64,000 nucleotides of DNA from Paracholeplasma vituli (GCF_025446935.1 NZ_JAOEGN010000003.1:1-64000), one strand, 5' to 3'. Shown: positions 1 to 10,150, counted from the stretch's first letter. A program made the numbers and translations. The notes: generated by a model not told the origin, from the letters alone.

Positions 1-891
1 TGCACAGATATTTCGTTAGCAGGCTCAATGAAAGGAATGGATCGTAATTCAAACACAGCATCATCACTTTTATGGGAAGTTGAAAGATTGTTAATCACAT
101 CTAAGGAATCAGAAGAATTGCCTAAATATTTACTTATGGAAAATGTACCTATGCTGGTATCTAAGAAATTCATTCATAGTTTTAATGAGTGGTTATTATT
201 CCTTGAGTCATTGGGTTATAAAAACTATTGGCAACAATTGAATGCTAAAGATTATGGCGTTCCACAAACTAGAAATAGGGTATTCTTAGTGTCAATTATA
301 GATCCCAAATACGAGTTCGAATTTCCAAAAGCATTTCCACTTGAGAAACATCTTATCGATTATCTTGAGCCAGTAGTAGATGAGAAGTATTTCATAAGCG
401 AAGCATTCTTGCTATATTGCACGGATCCAACAGATAGAAATGGGTTCATTAGAGGCAATAGGTTTAAACCACATGACACTACTAAGAGTAGATACGCATT
501 TACCATTACAACAAGAAAAGGGTCAACACCAACAGATAACTATGTTATCGTTCCAGAAGCAACGCTAAAGGGCTATAAAGAAGCTTATTTAGGCGATGGC
601 ATCTATATCAATCGTCCACATCAAAAACGTGGGTGTGTCCAAAAAGGAAAGATTCAAACCATAAAAAGGACAGTCAGTGATTTAGGTGTTATTGTCGAAA
701 GAGATAAAGCGCTTATGATACGTCGAATTACCCCTAGAGAATCACTAAGGTTGATGGGATGGACAGATGATAGAATCGATTTAATAATCGATAAATTCTC
801 AGATGCTAGGCTATACACATTTGCTGGTAATGGTATCGTCATCGATGTACTTTGTGAAATATTCAAGGAATTATTCAAACATGGTATTTAA
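1..891 (+). CDS. Phage DNA cytosine-5 methyltransferase, 5' end outside window
   Basis: C-terminal portion (297 codons visible) of a Dcm-type C5 methyltransferase. The frame is open from base 1 and begins CTDISLAGS, the stretch that normally directly follows the catalytic Pro-Cys motif, so the first methionine at 28 is internal. Visible motifs: ENV-type motif VI (LLMENVP, near nt 136), motif VIII (YGVPQTRNRVF, near nt 253), the PRESLRLMGW block, and motif X (FAGNGIVIDVL) near the C-terminus. It lies 35 nt upstream of the phage replisome organizer, a common place for a phage-encoded MTase that protects phage DNA from host restriction. The catalytic cysteine itself cannot be checked here. Confidence 0.9.
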   Translation, partial: CTDISLAGSMKGMDRNSNTASSLLWEVERLLITSKESEELPKYLLMENVPMLVSKKFIHSFNEWLLFLESLGYKNYWQQLNAKDYGVPQTRNRVFLVSIIDPKYEFEFPKAFPLEKHLIDYLEPVVDEKYFISEAFLLYCTDPTDRNGFIRGNRFKPHDTTKSRYAFTITTRKGSTPTDNYVIVPEATLKGYKEAYLGDGIYINRPHQKRGCVQKGKIQTIKRTVSDLGVIVERDKALMIRRITPRESLRLMGWTDDRIDLIIDKFSDARLYTFAGNGIVIDVLCEIFKELFKHGI

Positions 892-2162: not shown

Positions 2163-2663
2163 ATGAATAATTGTAATGGGAGTTTAAATGAAAAACTCGT
2201 TATATCAGCAACCAACTTTGCAAGAAGATTATTGAAAGTAGATGATGCACTATGGGTGTTCATCAACGATGGGGATATGTTTAAGTCAATCAATCATTCT
2301 GGTCTTTTCGAAAAGGAAATGTTTGTAATCCGGTACAATCGTGATTGGCTTAGGACTGCACAAACTGATAGAATTATCAAATGTGCATTCCATGAAACAT
2401 TTCATTCAGTTCAATACTCAGCTGTGATTGGATATGGTATGGGAGTTAAAAATAACCTATTTTCAGATGATGAAATGACGCAAATGATTCATGAATTTAA
2501 AGCGGAAAACTACGATGATTCAAGTGACGAATGGGGTACACACCTAGTTGAACAACAAGCAGAAGGGTTCGCACAAGAACTCTATGAAAAGTTTATTAAC
2601 GAATTCAAAAACATTGAAGTTTTTGTTGATAGATACTATGAAATGTATCCGAATATTGAATAA
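2163..2663 (+). CDS. Small HExxH zincin-like protein (ImmA-like?)
   Basis: 166 aa, start set by GGAGGAG about 7 nt upstream of ATG 2163. Residues ~79-85 read HETFHSV, a zinc-protease HExxH signature. A downstream EQQAEGFAQEL (near residue 133) could supply the third ligand, as in ImmA/IrrE-type and related minimal zincins. There is no signal peptide or membrane helix, so it should be cytoplasmic. It stands alone between the replication gene and the first island repeat, without an adjacent Cro/CI-like gene, so a repressor-cleaving role is only a guess. Confidence 0.5.
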   Translation: MNNCNGSLNEKLVISATNFARRLLKVDDALWVFINDGDMFKSINHSGLFEKEMFVIRYNRDWLRTAQTDRIIKCAFHETFHSVQYSAVIGYGMGVKNNLFSDDEMTQMIHEFKAENYDDSSDEWGTHLVEQQAEGFAQELYEKFINEFKNIEVFVDRYYEMYPNIE

Positions 2664-2938: not shown

Positions 2939-5467
2939 ATGAAATCTATTAAAATAAAAAAACTGAGTGATAAGCCACTAACATATATCAGTCTATTTAG
3001 CAGTGCTGGTGTTGGATGTTTTGGGTTCAAACAAAATGGTTTTGAGTGTATTGCTACTAATGAACTGATTGAAAGAAGATTAAATATTCAAAAAATTAAT
3101 GATAAATGTATTTATAAAACTGGATATATCCAGGGAGATATCACTTCTGTAGAAACCAAGAATCGAATCTTTAATGAAGTTAATTTTTGGAAGAAAAACC
3201 ATGAAATAAGTGAGCCAGATGTTGTTATTGCAACGCCACCATGTCAAGGGATGTCTGTCGCCAACCATAAAAAGTCAAAAAATGAAATTGAAAGAAATTC
3301 ATTAGTAATCGAATCAATTCACGTTGTAAAGGATCTTAAACCTAAAGTTTTTATATTTGAAAACGTAGCAGCGTTCTTAAAAACTGCTTGTATTGAAGAT
3401 GAAACAGTCATGTCGATATCTGATGCAATTGATAAGAACCTTTCTGATGATTATACGATTCAATCTAAAGTCATCAACTTTAAAAACTACGGATCAAACT
3501 CAAGTAGAACTAGAACACTTGTAATAGGAGTGTTAAAGAAATATGTAAATGAGTTTTCTCCTGAAGAGTTGTTTCCAGCATACCAAAAAGAAAAAAATCT
3601 TAAAACAGTAATCGGGCATCTGCCAAAACTTACAAAGATGGGTGAATTTGCAAAAGATGATTTTCTTCATTCTTTCAGAATATATGATGAAAGAATGAGA
3701 CCATGGATTACGGATTTAAAGGAAGGTCAATCAGCTTTTGATAATGTTGATCCACATAAACGTCCTCATCAGGTTTTAGAAGGAATAATTGTGCCAAACA
3801 AAAATAAAAATGGTGATAAATATACTCGTCAATGTTGGGATAAGGTTGCACCATGTATTCATACACGTAATGATCAGTTGGCAAGTCAAAACACAATTCA
3901 CCCTACTGATGATAGGGTATTTAGCATAAGAGAATTAATGAATATAATGGCTATACCCAAAGAATTCAAATGGTTTGAACAGGATTTGAAAACATTAAAC
4001 TCGCTTACTCAGGATGAAAAGTCAAAGTTATTAAAGACACAAGAAATTAATATAAGACAGTCATTAGGTGAAGCTGTGCCAACAGGTGTGTTTTCAAGTA
4101 TTGCGATAAATATTAAAAAAGTATTGACAGGCAATTCTTTAACTTCGAAAGAAATCACAGAATTAATAAAAGATTGGAAATTATTTGAACACCGTAATTT
4201 AATGGATTTCTTAGTAAAGAACCAGCAAAAATACAATGTAAAGACATTGGCTACGATTGCTGAGTATGCTAACGCAGCTCGAGAAAAAAATTCTGCATAT
4301 TATACTGATAAAATGTTGCTACACAATATCTACTCGATACTACCAGTGTTTGAAGGAAAGTCTATAATGCGTGTGTTAGAGCCATCTGTTGGAGTTGGAT
4401 CTTTCTTACCATTAGTTGCTAAAAAATACTCACATATTGAAGAAATTATTGTTGATTGTGTGGATATAAGTGTTGAGTCCATGGAAGTTCTAGAGTTTCT
4501 CATACCACTGTATAATCTAGGCGAAAATGTAAAAATAAATCTGATAGCCAAAGACTATTTAAAACATAAAATTATTGAAAAATATGATTTGGTTATAGGC
4601 AATCCCCCTTTTGGCAAGTTAACAACAAGCAAAAGTGATATAACAAAAGACTATCACAATTTGAAATCAAAAAACCTAGCATCGTATTTTATTGAAAAAA
4701 GTTTAAAATACTCTGATAATGTAGTAATGATTATGCCAAAAAACATATTAAATACATCAGAATTTGATGAAACAAGAAAGTTCATTTCACAGTATAACAT
4801 TAACAATATTGTTGATTTTGGAGAATACGGATTTAAGGGTGTTCTTGTAGAAACAATATGTTTGTCAATTAACACAACACTTAAACCAAGTAAAACTATT
4901 GTTACGTCTTTACCATTGGATATATCTAAAACACAGAATCAATCATATGTAACATCTAATAAGTACCCATATTGGATAATTTATAGAAATGATTATTTCG
5001 ACAACTTTATAAATAATCTTGAGCTGAATGTGTTTGAAGTATTTAGAGATAGACAATTGACTAATTCAAATATGAAATCTTTAGGAAGTGATAAAATTCG
5101 GGTTATTAAATCAAGAAATATCACAGATGATGGTCAAATTATTGATATTGACAATTATGATGCATACATTGATAGAACTGCCTTAAATACTTTTTCAGTT
5201 GCAAAGTATTTGGATGATGATAATGTATATTTAACTCCAAATATGACGTATAAAACCCGTCTAATGAAGAAACCAAAGAATACTGTCGTTAATGGATCTG
5301 TCGCAATTTTAATACCAAAATTCGATAAAAAACTTACGAATGAGGATATGAAATTTTTCTCATCAAATGAGTATAGAGAGTATATGCAGATAGCGAGAAA
5401 TTATCAGACAAGAACATTAAATGTTGATAATAATAGCATATATTTTTACGGAATCAGAAAGGGGTAA
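2939..5467 (+). CDS. Fused m5C + m6A DNA methyltransferase (restriction-modification)
   Basis: 842 aa with two complete catalytic halves. The N-terminal half is a C5-cytosine MTase: motif I FSSAGVGCFG (20-29), catalytic TPPCQG (~100), ENV (~141), and motif X SLGEAVPTGV (~374). The C-terminal half is an amino-MTase of the N6-adenine type: LEPSVGVGSF (~480) for SAM and NPPFGK (~554) as catalytic motif. ATG 2939 is preferred to GTG 2930 because GGAG (2927-2930) is 8 nt upstream of it. The nuclease gene starts 3 nt after the stop. Two base specificities in one chain suggest protection of the two strands of an asymmetric site, as in MnlI-type systems where separate m5C and m6A MTases accompany an HNH nuclease; that link is inference. 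Confidence 0.88.
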   Translation: MKSIKIKKLSDKPLTYISLFSSAGVGCFGFKQNGFECIATNELIERRLNIQKINDKCIYKTGYIQGDITSVETKNRIFNEVNFWKKNHEISEPDVVIATPPCQGMSVANHKKSKNEIERNSLVIESIHVVKDLKPKVFIFENVAAFLKTACIEDETVMSISDAIDKNLSDDYTIQSKVINFKNYGSNSSRTRTLVIGVLKKYVNEFSPEELFPAYQKEKNLKTVIGHLPKLTKMGEFAKDDFLHSFRIYDERMRPWITDLKEGQSAFDNVDPHKRPHQVLEGIIVPNKNKNGDKYTRQCWDKVAPCIHTRNDQLASQNTIHPTDDRVFSIRELMNIMAIPKEFKWFEQDLKTLNSLTQDEKSKLLKTQEINIRQSLGEAVPTGVFSSIAINIKKVLTGNSLTSKEITELIKDWKLFEHRNLMDFLVKNQQKYNVKTLATIAEYANAAREKNSAYYTDKMLLHNIYSILPVFEGKSIMRVLEPSVGVGSFLPLVAKKYSHIEEIIVDCVDISVESMEVLEFLIPLYNLGENVKINLIAKDYLKHKIIEKYDLVIGNPPFGKLTTSKSDITKDYHNLKSKNLASYFIEKSLKYSDNVVMIMPKNILNTSEFDETRKFISQYNINNIVDFGEYGFKGVLVETICLSINTTLKPSKTIVTSLPLDISKTQNQSYVTSNKYPYWIIYRNDYFDNFINNLELNVFEVFRDRQLTNSNMKSLGSDKIRVIKSRNITDDGQIIDIDNYDAYIDRTALNTFSVAKYLDDDNVYLTPNMTYKTRLMKKPKNTVVNGSVAILIPKFDKKLTNEDMKFFSSNEYREYMQIARNYQTRTLNVDNNSIYFYGIRKG

Positions 5468-5470
5468 ATA

Positions 5471-6673
5471 ATGAGACTAATCGATGGAGAACACTTAGAT
5501 ACTTTATTGGGTGAAAGAGATTTTGATATTAGAAAAAGTCATAATGCTCGTTGGATTGATCAAAAATGTACCCCTGATGTCGTAACTATAATTGCAGATT
5601 GTATTTTAGAGTTTTTATCAGATAAAGAAGATGATACGATTTTTACTTCTATGGACATTTGGCATAATGATTATACAGTGCAAAATGTATTGGATATTTT
5701 TAAGAAACCGAGTCCCAAGGAGAAAAGTGCTAGAAATGAGTATGATAAATTTTTCCAACAACCAATGGGGATGTTTTCATATGCAGGAGTTTTAGAAAAA
5801 CACAAAAAAGGAAATAGAAATTTTTATAAACTTAGCGAAAAAGCTTTATTAGAGGAAATATCATTAAGTGAACGTAATGCGTTAAAATTCCTAATCAAAT
5901 ACATCACAAAAGTCTTATGTGACTCAGATATATACTACCTTTTTGAAGAGTTTTTCAGACTTCAAAACAAGGATGCATATAATAATTTAAAACGGGGATT
6001 TACATCTTTTACACAAGCGTTTACACCTATAAATGGCGATACAGAGGTTTGGAGAATTTTCATCAAAGTTATTAATCCACTAGCATATAGCAAAAACTCT
6101 GCAGGTACTGAAAGAGGTATGCTATCTAAAGATTTAATAACTTATGATATGTTAATGTATAATCGAGATAACTTTAGAGACATATATCAACGAAAACCCA
6201 AAGGTATCACTCGTGGGTCACACGTAACCCCATCTTTACCGAGAGCAAAATATATACAGTACTTAACCGATAAAGCAATGAAGAATGTCAAACTTATAAA
6301 TCGCTTTTACAATTTTGGTCTCAGTGAAGTTGCTGGAGATGATGAGCTTGCAACTGAAGCTCACCACATTTTTCCTCGATCTGATTTTCCACAAATTGCT
6401 TATTTTTTAGAAAATTTAATTAATTTAACACCGAATCAACATCGAAACCATGCACATCCAAATGGAAACTATTCTGTAATTGACAGAGAATTTCAAAAGA
6501 TATGCTTAATTGCGAAATTAGGAACCATTAGAAAATCAATTGAGAATAATTGGGGAGATTATGATTTTAATAACTTCTTGTTTGTTGCTGATACTGGTTA
6601 TAGTACAGATATATTTTCTAAAATTGCTACATTTGACTACGATAATGTTATCAGCAAGATCAATTTAATATAA
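5471..6673 (+). CDS. HNH restriction endonuclease partner
   Basis: 400 aa. An HNH (beta-beta-alpha metal) nuclease core lies in the last third: EAHHIFPRS (~296-304), then LINLTPNQHRNHAHP (~315-329), giving the His-His/Asn/His pattern. The first ~250 residues are unassigned and would hold target recognition. It starts 3 nt after the methyltransferase stop, with GGGGT just upstream, so the two are co-translated. The coupling to a dedicated MTase points to a Type II restriction enzyme rather than a homing nuclease. The site is unknown. Confidence 0.75.
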   Translation: MRLIDGEHLDTLLGERDFDIRKSHNARWIDQKCTPDVVTIIADCILEFLSDKEDDTIFTSMDIWHNDYTVQNVLDIFKKPSPKEKSARNEYDKFFQQPMGMFSYAGVLEKHKKGNRNFYKLSEKALLEEISLSERNALKFLIKYITKVLCDSDIYYLFEEFFRLQNKDAYNNLKRGFTSFTQAFTPINGDTEVWRIFIKVINPLAYSKNSAGTERGMLSKDLITYDMLMYNRDNFRDIYQRKPKGITRGSHVTPSLPRAKYIQYLTDKAMKNVKLINRFYNFGLSEVAGDDELATEAHHIFPRSDFPQIAYFLENLINLTPNQHRNHAHPNGNYSVIDREFQKICLIAKLGTIRKSIENNWGDYDFNNFLFVADTGYSTDIFSKIATFDYDNVISKINLI

Positions 6674-6688
6674 GGGAGTGAAATTGAT

Positions 6689-7096
6689 ATGGCAAAACTC
6701 ATTTATACGACTAGAAAATCAATTGTATTTAATAGTTTATCTGAAGTATATGAAACCATTGGAATACTAACATCTGGGAAGTACACCATGTTGAAAATTG
6801 AACAGAATCAATTATCTGGAGCATGGGGGAAAGAGGGGAGGATTATTATTTATAGTAGTCCACATAAATTTCCGAAACCTATTTCAGATCGATATAGTGC
6901 AGGTAATGGGAGAATATTGTACAGAGTAAATAGCAATGCATTCGTTTTAGATATGATTTCGAATCATGGCTTTACCATAGTTCCAATCACGTCAACCGGG
7001 AAAACAGCAAATGTTAATCCTCCATCGTATATTGAAGGTTTATCTTTTGTACCTAGTGCTTATCAAGCAGACTTCACAAGAGGTTATAATAAATAA
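6689..7096 (+). CDS. Unknown protein, third gene of the R-M operon
   Basis: 135 aa, 15 nt after the HNH nuclease with its own GGGAG Shine-Dalgarno, so probably co-transcribed. I do not recognise the family. It is a mixed alpha/beta soluble protein, with no membrane segment, no cysteine cluster and no obvious HTH. Its position could fit a specificity, accessory or controller role, but the sequence does not show which. A 123-nt gap separates it from the next operon. Confidence 0.5.
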   Translation: MAKLIYTTRKSIVFNSLSEVYETIGILTSGKYTMLKIEQNQLSGAWGKEGRIIIYSSPHKFPKPISDRYSAGNGRILYRVNSNAFVLDMISNHGFTIVPITSTGKTANVNPPSYIEGLSFVPSAYQADFTRGYNK

Positions 7097-7219: not shown

Positions 7220-8182
7220 ATGCATATGAAAAGAGAGAAAAACTTAAAAAGAATCGCTGAACTTTTAGCATGGATTCAAGCTAAAGTTCAATTGTTTAAC
7301 AAATTACATTATCTTGACATTAACATTTCCTCTGAAACCTTTTTTGCGGATCTCCTTAATTTGGTCATGGATCTAAACTTTTCTAATCTTAATCAGCAAA
7401 ATATGAATAATCCTTATGCAGATTTGTATGATCAAATGAATAATATTTATTGTCAAGTTACATCAGAAAAGACATCTGGAAAGATTAAGGAGTCAATTGA
7501 TGGAGTTGAGAGTCTAGTTAGTAGCGATAAAGACTCCAGACTTATTATCTTTTTACTGACAAGTAAACCTAGATTTACAACAGATTTTGTTACTAAAAAA
7601 ATTACATTTTGTAAAGACAATGACATAATAGATATGTCGAAACTTTTGCATATAATAAGTACCAAAGATAATGCTAAAGTATTAATTATCAAGGAATACT
7701 TAGAGCATAATCTTGATGCAATAAATGAAAAAGAGAAGACGATATGTAGTGAAGATGAAACAATTATTCAAATTATAGATTATTTATCTAACACGCAAAC
7801 GTTATCAGATGAAATAGATTCTATTATTGATCCACATGATAAAATTAATAGAAGATTTTCAAGTTATGCCGAATATATTAAGGATGAATATAAAGACTTG
7901 TATGTTGCATATGGAATATCATTGAGTACTGTGTATGGAAGCTTAATCAACGATGAAATAAAGAGAGCAATTCATAACAGGTATTTAAAAACACTAAGTG
8001 TGAAAGCGTTAGAAATATGTCAAAACAATCCAAAAATGGCATTAGATAACTTGGTTATAGAATTAAATAATGTTATTTCATCAAATGGAAGAAATTATGA
8101 TAAAAGTGCTATTAGATTTTATCTGGTGGATCAAATAATAAAATGTAATGTATTTCCAAATGAGGTAAAATATGCAAATTGA
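7220..8182 (+). CDS. SMEK-domain protein of an ABC-three-component (ABC-3C)-like system
   Basis: 320 aa. The N-terminal ~110 residues resemble the SMEK domain: a leading helix (LAWIQAKVQLFNKLHY), SSETFFADLLNLV, then the hallmark CQVTSEKTSGKIKESI (~78-93) with the Ser-x-Lys element. In ABC-3C conflict systems this component is proposed to sense or act on nucleic acid. The C-terminal ~170 residues are unassigned. ATG 7220 or ATG 7226 could be used (AGAGGA at 7210-7215). Its 3' end overlaps the next gene by 11 nt, so translation of the three components is coupled. Confidence 0.68.
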   Translation: MHMKREKNLKRIAELLAWIQAKVQLFNKLHYLDINISSETFFADLLNLVMDLNFSNLNQQNMNNPYADLYDQMNNIYCQVTSEKTSGKIKESIDGVESLVSSDKDSRLIIFLLTSKPRFTTDFVTKKITFCKDNDIIDMSKLLHIISTKDNAKVLIIKEYLEHNLDAINEKEKTICSEDETIIQIIDYLSNTQTLSDEIDSIIDPHDKINRRFSSYAEYIKDEYKDLYVAYGISLSTVYGSLINDEIKRAIHNRYLKTLSVKALEICQNNPKMALDNLVIELNNVISSNGRNYDKSAIRFYLVDQIIKCNVFPNEVKYAN

Positions 8183-8393
8183 CAAGCAAATTGCTGAACA
8201 ATCATCATCCTATGTAGGGTATTTGATTCTAAAGGTTTTGAATAAAAGGCGTGAATGCACGATTTATGATTTATATGATTCTTTAAATAAGAGTATTAAT
8301 CTTTCTAGTAGACAGTTAATGGCAGGAATGATTTTTTTATTTTCTTTAGGCTTATTAGAATTTTCGGAGGCGAAATTATGGTTAATCAAATGA
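8172..8393 (+). CDS. Small middle component of the ABC-3C-like system
   Basis: 73 aa. It overlaps the upstream SMEK gene by 11 nt and the downstream ATPase gene by 16 nt. The pattern (SYVGYLILKVL, TIYDLYDSL, LSSRQLMAGMIFLFSLGLLEF) is that of a minimal winged helix, as expected for the small middle component (MC6-like) that links effector and ATPase in ABC-3C systems. Its identity rests on size, fold pattern and position between the two recognisable partners. Confidence 0.62.
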   Translation: MQIDKQIAEQSSSYVGYLILKVLNKRRECTIYDLYDSLNKSINLSSRQLMAGMIFLFSLGLLEFSEAKLWLIK

Positions 8394-10150
8394 AAAGAGT
8401 TAAATTATTAAAATTATACTCCGATAATAATATATTTGAGCCAGTTGACTTTAAAAATGGACTAAACATAATATTGGGTGAGAAGTCGGATACTAAAACA
8501 ACTTCAGGTAGTAAAACTAACGGAGTTGGTAAAACCATCTTAGCACAGTTCATTGATTTTTGCTTATTTGCAGAATATTCAAGCTCGAGAGTAAGTAAAA
8601 TACCAAAAGATATTCTCCCAGTTGATGAGAACATTAACTTGGATCTTATGATTGGATCGGCAATATATACGATATCTAGAAATAGAAAAAATGAAAAAAC
8701 CCCAGTTATAACTATTAATAATCAAAACCTTATATTTCCCAATTTTAAACAATCATTACAGTATATATCGAACATCGTTTTTGAAGAATCAAACCTTGAT
8801 ATTTCTCCATCTTTAAGGTCACTGCTTTCAATATTGATAAGGGATGAAAACTCAGAGTTCAAAGATATAGCTAAACCGTTCGATCTTAGATTAAGAATAC
8901 CTGAAGACTATGCACCACATCTATATTTGATGAACATTTCACTGATTCAGTATAAAGATGCTGTGGAGAATCTCAAAAGAATTAAATCTTTAATTGAGGT
9001 TATTAACAATGAGAAAAAAGAATTAACTAATAATAATCAAAAAGATATATCATTTGTGAAAGCTGAATTGAATGAGATAAATAAAGATGTTGATATCATT
9101 GGAAAAGCACTTGATGAGTATAAAACAGCAGATAGTTACGAGATTATAGAAAAAGAGGTCTCAGAGCTTGAAATAGAGATAAAGAGATTAAGTTCAGAAT
9201 TGAAAGTTTTGTATTATGAAATTAAAAAAATAAATTCTATGCCGAAAATTGAACAAATCCCCTCGGATGAAATTGAAATTCTGTATAATTCTTTCATAAA
9301 AAACTTAGGAACATTAATTGTAAAAAACTTAGATGAGGTTACACAGTTCAAATCAAAAATTGAAGTATTTCAAAGATCTTTACTTGAAGAAAAACGAGTA
9401 GATATTCAAAAGCAGATTGAAATTTTAAAAAATGAAAAGAATCAAATTGATATCCAATATTCTCAAAGAATGAGACTACTTGATACTAAAGGTGTGTTTC
9501 AAAATTTAAAAACCACTTTAGGACTTTATCAAGAAAAGAAAAACACAATGCTGAAAACACAAGTTTTACTACAAAATTATGAAAAACATGTTTCAGATAA
9601 GAAAAAACTTGATGAAGACAAAATAAGACATTCGAACGAATTAGATGAACTTTTTAATAAAAATGTCAAAAGTATAGAATCATTTCAAAATACAATACTA
9701 TCAATTCATGAGTATATAATGGGTAATCGAGAATGTTCATTTGGAATTGACACAAATACGAAATCTCGTACAAATCCTGTTAGCGTTAATTTGAGAATTC
9801 ATGACGACGGAAGTCATGGTATAGATAGAATTAAAGTATTTATATACGATATAAGTCTACTATTTAACGAGTTGACCAGAACAAGACATCCATTGTTTTT
9901 ACTTCATGACAATTTATTCGAAACTGATCAGAACACTAGAATAATGAGTTTAAACTATATTTATGAAAAGACAGTTGAGCATGCAGATGATTTTCAATAT
10001 ATCGTGACCTTAAATAAGGACTATCTGTTTTCTGATAATGGTGTTGATGCTAAATTACTATTTAATTATGAAGACTATGTGATAGCTACTTACACAAAAG
10101 AGAATAAGTTCTTAAAAAAATCTTACAAAGAGATTAGCAAAGAAAAATAG
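8378..10150 (+). CDS. Coiled-coil ABC-type ATPase (DUF2326-like) of the ABC-3C-like system
   Basis: 590 aa, start set by GGAGG ~8 nt upstream. The P-loop NGVGKT (~48-53) sits early, after an N-terminal strand pair; residues ~190-430 are a long Lys/Glu-rich coiled coil; LFLLHDNLFETD (~505-516) is a Walker-B/D-loop-like end. This RecN/SMC-like layout with a short C-terminal lobe matches DUF2326/YydD-type ATPases found with SMEK and middle components. ATP-driven DNA clamping that licenses the effector is the proposed role for the class. Overlap with the 73-aa gene supports one complex. Confidence 0.72.
   Translation: MVNQMKRVKLLKLYSDNNIFEPVDFKNGLNIILGEKSDTKTTSGSKTNGVGKTILAQFIDFCLFAEYSSSRVSKIPKDILPVDENINLDLMIGSAIYTISRNRKNEKTPVITINNQNLIFPNFKQSLQYISNIVFEESNLDISPSLRSLLSILIRDENSEFKDIAKPFDLRLRIPEDYAPHLYLMNISLIQYKDAVENLKRIKSLIEVINNEKKELTNNNQKDISFVKAELNEINKDVDIIGKALDEYKTADSYEIIEKEVSELEIEIKRLSSELKVLYYEIKKINSMPKIEQIPSDEIEILYNSFIKNLGTLIVKNLDEVTQFKSKIEVFQRSLLEEKRVDIQKQIEILKNEKNQIDIQYSQRMRLLDTKGVFQNLKTTLGLYQEKKNTMLKTQVLLQNYEKHVSDKKKLDEDKIRHSNELDELFNKNVKSIESFQNTILSIHEYIMGNRECSFGIDTNTKSRTNPVSVNLRIHDDGSHGIDRIKVFIYDISLLFNELTRTRHPLFLLHDNLFETDQNTRIMSLNYIYEKTVEHADDFQYIVTLNKDYLFSDNGVDAKLLFNYEDYVIATYTKENKFLKKSYKEISKEK

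What the first reader, a model, noticed from the sequence alone, without database searches (positions are those of the whole stretch)
2939..7096. Single-chain m5C+m6A methyltransferase with HNH nuclease and an unknown third gene
Complete C5-cytosine and N6-adenine type catalytic motif sets are present in one 842-aa protein, coupled (3-nt gap) to an HNH nuclease. Established: MnlI-type enzymes use separate m5C and m6A MTases with an HNH nuclease on an asymmetric site. Inference: this is a fused, compact version; the 135-aa third protein has no known counterpart to me.
Basis: partly seen in the sequence, partly recalled or inferred. Interest (0 to 1): 0.6.

Follow-up and report, generated by a model that had tools for sequence, protein, structure and literature searches.

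The report
HpyAV-type restriction system plus accessory gene
This is a known kind of bacterial DNA-defence system, in which one protein puts two different methyl marks on the cell's own DNA and a second protein is the matching DNA cutter; the unexpected part is the small third gene, which belongs to an unnamed protein family that travels with the cutting gene of several unrelated defence systems.

Summary
Window 2939-5467 encodes one 842-aa chain with complete m5C and m6A methyltransferase halves. A 400-aa HNH nuclease follows after a 3-nt gap, then a 135-aa protein. The interpretation needs correcting: the core is not a new compact MnlI. It is a HpyAV-type Type IIS system. M.HpyAV of H. pylori is a published single-chain m5C+m6A enzyme with an HNH endonuclease (CCTTC 6/5; PMC2816704), and its paired m5C/m6A marks on CCTTC/GAAGG are already mapped (PMC3936762). 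At least 209 relatives of the nuclease exist in public genomes.

The third gene (here "T") is the new part. It has no match in Pfam, NCBIfam, PHROGs, PADLOC or PDB, but it is not an orphan. It lies beside the nuclease gene, on the same strand, in 35 of 91 HpyAV-type loci across several phyla. No other gene recurs there. It also sits in AlwI-like and LAGLIDADG-like Type II loci, and occurs fused to HNH, tudor-like and DUF3883-like domains. In 392 related genomes all six T genes lie in Type II restriction-modification loci.

I read T as a non-essential accessory of the restriction side, probably a DNA-reading module. Its biochemical function is inferred, not shown.

The parts
2939..5467 (+). single-chain m5C + m6A DNA methyltransferase (842 aa), M.HpyAV type: residues ~15-350 C5 MTase, ~440-842 gamma-type (Eco57I-like) N6-adenine MTase
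   Evidence: full-length homologues 45-57% identical and 51-53% to Helicobacter loci
5471..6673 (+). HNH (beta-beta-alpha-Me) Type IIS restriction endonuclease, 400 aa; catalytic H298 H299 N315 H324
   Evidence: PDLC03488 414 bits; alignments; same spacing as HpyAV catalytic residues; 209 relatives in genome contigs
6689..7096 (+). T, 135-aa accessory protein of an unnamed family (motif ExNxxxGAWxxExR ... AGxG ... RxN); last gene of the module
   Evidence: alignments; neighbourhood survey; AF2 model pLDDT 88.7; no match in Pfam/NCBIfam/PHROGs/PADLOC/PDB

Best explanation
A complete HpyAV-type Type IIS restriction-modification module with an added third component. The 842-aa enzyme methylates both strands of one asymmetric site: its N-terminal half puts m5C on one strand and its C-terminal half puts m6A on the other. 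By homology the site is probably CCTTC/GAAGG (inferred, not tested here). The HNH endonuclease binds the same site when it is unmethylated and cuts a few bases downstream. The third protein, T, is a member of an unrecognised family that accompanies the restriction gene of several unrelated Type II systems. It is not needed for the basic cut-and-protect chemistry, because most homologues lack it, and HpyAV was expressed as an M + R pair in E. coli. The mechanism I think most likely for T is that of a small DNA-binding or DNA-reading module that works with the endonuclease, supplied in trans here and in cis in the T-HNH fusions, to improve restriction of incoming DNA. Shown: gene content, intact active sites, the T family and its linkage to the endonuclease genes. 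Inferred: recognition site, cleavage, and T's biochemical role (about 0.35 for DNA reading specifically).
For: Core; literature. T as a real component: found in 35 of 91 distinct loci with this endonuclease, same strand in 35/35, 30 directly 3' of it, most with gaps of 3-74 nt. In 59 T-less loci no other gene family recurs beside the endonuclease. On a Psychrobacter plasmid the MTase gene is inverted and apart while T stays 20 nt after the endonuclease gene. T occurs in only 6 of 392 Bacillota genomes, all six in Type II R-M loci: three HpyAV-type, one AlwI-like, two LAGLIDADG-like. T is fused to an HNH nuclease domain in L095 and L104, to PcrA/UvrD-tudor-like domains in L092 and L133, and to a NOV_C/DUF3883 domain in L144; these partners point to DNA transactions.
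Against: T's AF2 model has no significant structural match (best PDB E 0.6), so DNA binding is not supported by fold. The T family has no common charge: isoelectric points run from 4.8 to 9.9; the window's own T is basic, 9.7. CCTTC is not avoided in 306 kb of the host (observed/expected 0.93, rank 110 of 512). A few T copies sit away from any endonuclease gene.
Confidence: 0.8

Rival explanations
1. T is a restraint or immunity protein: it binds the endonuclease and holds it inactive until the methyltransferase has protected the chromosome, easing entry of the module into a new host.
For: T stays with the endonuclease gene rather than the MTase gene and the module is spread horizontally: only this species of 7 sampled in the genus has it. 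By recalled knowledge, HNH DNases such as colicins have small immunity partners.
Against: T accompanies endonucleases of unrelated type (HNH, AlwI-like, LAGLIDADG-like), hard to reconcile with a specific inhibitor of one nuclease fold, and it occurs as the N-terminal domain of an intact-looking HNH nuclease. Most homologous systems do without it.
Confidence: 0.25
2. T is an independent anti-phage or modification-dependent restriction factor that merely shares defence loci with R-M genes as back-up, without acting on the endonuclease.
For: T-HNH fusions have the plan of a reader domain plus HNH (HNH half matches a Type IV REase model at 5e-6). One T sits beside a GmrSD-like DUF262 gene, and T-DUF3883 hits candidate defence families through its C-terminal part.
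Against: The tight same-strand spacing after the endonuclease gene in 30 loci, often within 30 nt, and 6 of 6 T genes within R-M loci in an unbiased sample, argue for coupling rather than loose co-residence.
Confidence: 0.2
3. T is a transcriptional controller (C protein analogue) of the module.
For: Small gene inside an R-M operon.
Against: No helix-turn-helix or repressor family match; the model is a mixed alpha/beta protein; T is usually the last gene, whereas C genes normally precede R; fusions to HNH and tudor-like domains do not fit.
Confidence: 0.07
4. The third ORF is an unrelated neighbour with no part in the system.
For: About 60% of homologous systems lack it, and its presence changes many times on the endonuclease tree (19 changes).
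Against: 35/35 same strand, median gap about 22 nt, four or more T subtypes in the same place, no other recurrent neighbour, and plasmid hits for T (2 records of 72,556) that both carry this endonuclease.
Confidence: 0.03

Closest known systems
HpyAV R-M system of Helicobacter pylori (hp0054 M, hp0053 R; CCTTC 6/5)
   Same: Single-chain C5 + N6 MTase of about 823-842 aa followed by an HNH Type IIS endonuclease of about 400-420 aa in the same direction; identical HHx15Nx8H catalytic spacing; 51-53% (M) and 45-49% (R) identity to Helicobacter loci of this type.
   Different: A T gene follows R here; none was found by profile in six Helicobacteraceae loci examined and none is described for HpyAV.
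Hin4II R-M system of Haemophilus influenzae
   Same: Same MTase halves and endonuclease family; same CCTTC recognition as HpyAV (PMC2816704).
   Different: m5C and m6A MTases are separate genes (M1, M2). Split forms also occur in loci L043 (mycoplasma-like) and L047/L048 (Acinetobacter plasmids).
MnlI R-M system (CCTC 7/6)
   Same: Asymmetric site, m5C + m6A protection, HNH Type IIS endonuclease (recalled; partly).
   Different: Different catalytic spacing (ExHHx14Nx8H, recalled), separate MTases, and not the nearest relative. A fused C5 + beta-class N6 form with an HNH neighbour is DCM3 of Metamycoplasma hominis (PMC10305163), which is the true fused counterpart of that branch.
SRA-HNH, EVE-HNH, wH-HNH modification-dependent nucleases
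   Same: The T-HNH fusions (L095, L104) have the same plan: one N-terminal domain plus a C-terminal HNH of this type.
   Different: T matches none of those reader domains; whether T reads modified bases is untested.

Membership tests
HpyAV-type Type IIS R-M system | C5 and N6 MTase domains fused in one chain, full length about 810-860 aa | tested here: met
   842 aa; full-length hits and PDLC03277 residues 9-840
HpyAV-type Type IIS R-M system | both MTase catalytic sites intact | tested here: met
   PPCQ, ENV, GEAVP and GNPPF, EPSVGxGxF conserved in the alignment
HpyAV-type Type IIS R-M system | HNH endonuclease with H-H-x15-N-x8-H as in HpyAV H294/H295/N311/H320, directly downstream in the same direction | tested here: met
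   H298/H299/N315/H324, 3-nt gap (paper)
HpyAV-type Type IIS R-M system | recognition of CCTTC with m5C on CCTTC and m6A on GAAGG | not testable with these tools
   Needs methylome data. Target-recognition regions are well conserved with Helicobacter members; CCTTC is not avoided in 306 kb of host DNA, which is uninformative for a recently acquired system
HpyAV-type Type IIS R-M system | cleavage 6/5 nt downstream | not testable with these tools
   biochemistry needed
MnlI-type R-M system | catalytic motif ExHHx14Nx8H (recalled from Kriukiene 2005) | tested here: not met
   spacing is x15, as in HpyAV
MnlI-type R-M system | separate m6A and m5C MTase genes | tested here: not met
   one chain
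T family (this report) | ExNxxxGAWxxExR and RxN motifs, full-length profile match | tested here: met
   window T is the top hit of its family profile, 1e-44 to 1e-46
C (controller) protein of R-M systems | small helix-turn-helix regulator preceding R | tested here: not met
   no HTH family match, alpha/beta model, gene placed last
Modification reader domains (SRA, EVE, wH) | profile or fold match | tested here: not met
   no Pfam/NCBIfam match for T, no PDB fold match

The most novel reading that the evidence does not exclude
T is the founding family of a general, fold-independent accessory of Type II restriction endonucleases: a small DNA-reading module that several unrelated Type II systems (HpyAV-type HNH, AlwI-type, LAGLIDADG-like) have recruited next to their endonuclease, and that also drives its own T-HNH nucleases. 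That would be a shared helper for Type II restriction, comparable in spread to C proteins but acting on the cutting step.
Probability: 0.35. Interest if true: 0.7.

Novelty: new variant of a known kind. Interest (0 to 1): 0.42.

Why it matters
The core system is textbook and confirms how a single polypeptide can protect both strands of an asymmetric site. The third gene matters more. Type II R-M systems are usually described as M + R (+ C); a further protein family that recurs beside the endonuclease gene across phyla and across unrelated endonuclease types has apparently gone unannotated. If it modulates cutting, it bears on why some restriction systems withstand modified or anti-restriction-armed phages, and it gives a ready test with the known HpyAV enzymes, which naturally lack it.

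Tried and rejected
MnlI as nearest kin: rejected on catalytic spacing and because HpyAV-type relatives fit at full length. T as chance ORF or passenger: rejected by the neighbourhood survey and the 59-locus control. T identity by profile, PDB sequence and fold searches: nothing. Fold search with the endonuclease model: no significant hit; only weak winged-helix matches such as Fur, HlyU and CodY, which I do not use beyond noting that the N-terminal half may hold a wH-like recognition domain. Host avoidance of CCTTC as a clue to specificity: none seen. Viral collection scans with non-HpyAV T queries found no further homologues. A CoiA-like gene near the window system and one near the Psychrobacter system looked like a shared neighbour but are not detectably related. 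Literature searches on accessory genes of Type II systems gave nothing on T.

Full report
WHAT IS THERE. The first protein matches Pfam DNA_methylase over residues 15-350 and Eco57I-type adenine MTase over 539-630, and PADLOC's Type II MTase model PDLC03277 end to end (935 bits). In an alignment of 12 homologues both active sites are intact and conserved: PPCQ, ENV and GEAVP for m5C, EPSVGxGxF and GNPPF for m6A. The second protein matches the REase_II model PDLC03488 (414 bits) and has the HNH arrangement H298-H299-x15-N315-x8-H324, invariant in 22 relatives.

WHICH KNOWN SYSTEM. Chan et al. 2010 (PMC2816704) describe HpyAV of H. pylori. M.HpyAV is a true fusion of C5 and N6 MTases (823 aa), followed by an HNH endonuclease whose essential residues are H294, H295, N311 and H320. 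That is exactly the spacing seen here. It recognises CCTTC 6/5, and ten homologous fused systems are listed, with Hin4II as the unfused relative. Krebes et al. 2013 (PMC3936762) mapped the marks of M.HpyAV: m5C at 1198 of 1304 CCTTC sites and m6A at 1252 of 1304 on the other strand. The prediction in the finding has therefore already been met for the family. In Helicobacter genomes the homologues are 51-53% (M) and 45-49% (R) identical to the window proteins over most of their length (some of those R genes are truncated or broken). A scan of genome contigs with the endonuclease profile confirmed 209 relatives, 80 kept, from Bacillota, Spirochaetota, Fibrobacterota, Campylobacterota, Pseudomonadota and others. 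Nearly all carry M1-M2-R in order, and split MTases also occur. Within the host's genus only this species of seven sampled has the endonuclease, consistent with horizontal acquisition.

THE THIRD GENE. The 135-aa protein (T) has no match in Pfam, NCBIfam, PADLOC, PHROGs or PDB sequences. Its relatives were first seen on Acinetobacter and Psychrobacter plasmids, in 2 of 72,556 records, both of which also carry this endonuclease. On the Psychrobacter plasmid the MTase gene is inverted and separate while T stays 20 nt behind the endonuclease. After removing duplicates, 35 of 91 loci with the endonuclease have T, all on the same strand, 30 of them 3' of it, with a median gap near 22 nt. In 59 loci without T no other gene family recurs next to the endonuclease. 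On a quick tree of 92 endonucleases the T label needs 19 changes against 28 for shuffled labels, so T is inherited with the endonuclease but gained and lost often.

T comes in several sizes: about 98, 120-137 and 168-172 aa, plus fusions. Fusion partners are a C-terminal HNH nuclease (L095, L104; Pfam HNH 9e-7), PcrA/UvrD-tudor-like domains (L092, L133), and NOV_C/DUF3883 (L144). Conserved residues are N40, G44, A45, W46 and R79, with E38, E49, R51 and N81 nearly so.

T BEYOND HpyAV-TYPE SYSTEMS. In 392 genomes drawn evenly from the host's phylum, T occurs in six, all within Type II R-M loci. Three are HpyAV-type. One (L144) follows a fused pair of D12-class adenine MTases and an AlwI-like endonuclease. 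Two (L145, L146) accompany a LAGLIDADG-like protein (my reading of its sequence; no Pfam match), a small possible PD-(D/E)XK protein, and MTases; one of those MTases is a fusion of EcoRI-type m6A and m5C domains. A further family-level search in Lachnospiraceae found T in 4 of 348 genomes. Of the contexts not already known, one is T-HNH after a HpyAV-type endonuclease, one is next to a DUF262 gene, and one is at a contig edge.

STRUCTURE. The AF2 model of T is confident (pLDDT 88.7, pTM 0.84), a mixed alpha/beta protein, with no significant match among PDB chains or viral predicted structures. The endonuclease model (pLDDT 86.7) also finds no significant match, only weak winged-helix hits.

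HOW IT MOST LIKELY WORKS. Methylation and cutting follow from the family: m5C on one strand and m6A on the other of one asymmetric site, probably CCTTC, and cleavage downstream by the HNH domain. T keeps company with endonucleases rather than MTases, with unrelated endonuclease types, and with nuclease or DNA-handling fusion partners. The least strained reading is a restriction-side accessory that reads or binds DNA and modulates cutting. A restraint (immunity-like) role and an independent back-up nuclease-reader role remain open. HpyAV was expressed from M and R plasmids alone, so T cannot be essential to the basic reaction.

WHAT IS NOT SHOWN. No recognition site, methylation, cleavage or T activity was measured. 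CCTTC is not avoided in 306 kb of host DNA (0.93, rank 110 of 512). The absence of T from REBASE or papers outside the held library could not be checked.

Noticed in passing
window 7220-10150: Directly downstream lies an ABC-three-component-like set: SMEK-domain protein (7220-8182), MC6-like small protein (8172-8393), DUF2326 ATPase (8378-10150; PADLOC PDC-M68B). The R-M module thus sits in a defence cluster.
   Followed up: partly
window 1-891: A second C5-cytosine MTase, cut off by the start of the contig (Pfam positions 81-324 only), followed by a phage replisome-organiser-like gene (918-2003).
   Followed up: no
window 2163-2663: 166-aa protein with an HExxH-like stretch (FHETFHSVQ), no family match; just upstream of the R-M module.
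   Followed up: no
L145:5109-8838 (-): Different Type II module with a single-chain EcoRI-type m6A + m5C MTase (703 aa), a tudor-T fusion and a LAGLIDADG-like putative endonuclease: another single-chain double methyltransferase, apparently unclassified.
   Followed up: partly
L095:7623-8423 and L104:7620-8423: T domain fused to an HNH nuclease of the kind found in modification-dependent restriction enzymes, each followed by a second stand-alone T gene.
   Followed up: partly
L133:3142-6257: Viral contig with two HpyAV-type endonuclease genes in tandem around a T-tudor gene.
   Followed up: no
L168:1002-1376 and L171:8424-8798 (-): A second small companion (124 aa, MKRKEFKE...) near HpyAV-type endonuclease and T genes in Lachnospiraceae.
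   Followed up: no
L211:3998-5096: Helicobacteraceae genome with the HpyAV-type endonuclease gene broken into two frames beside an intact fused MTase gene.
   Followed up: no
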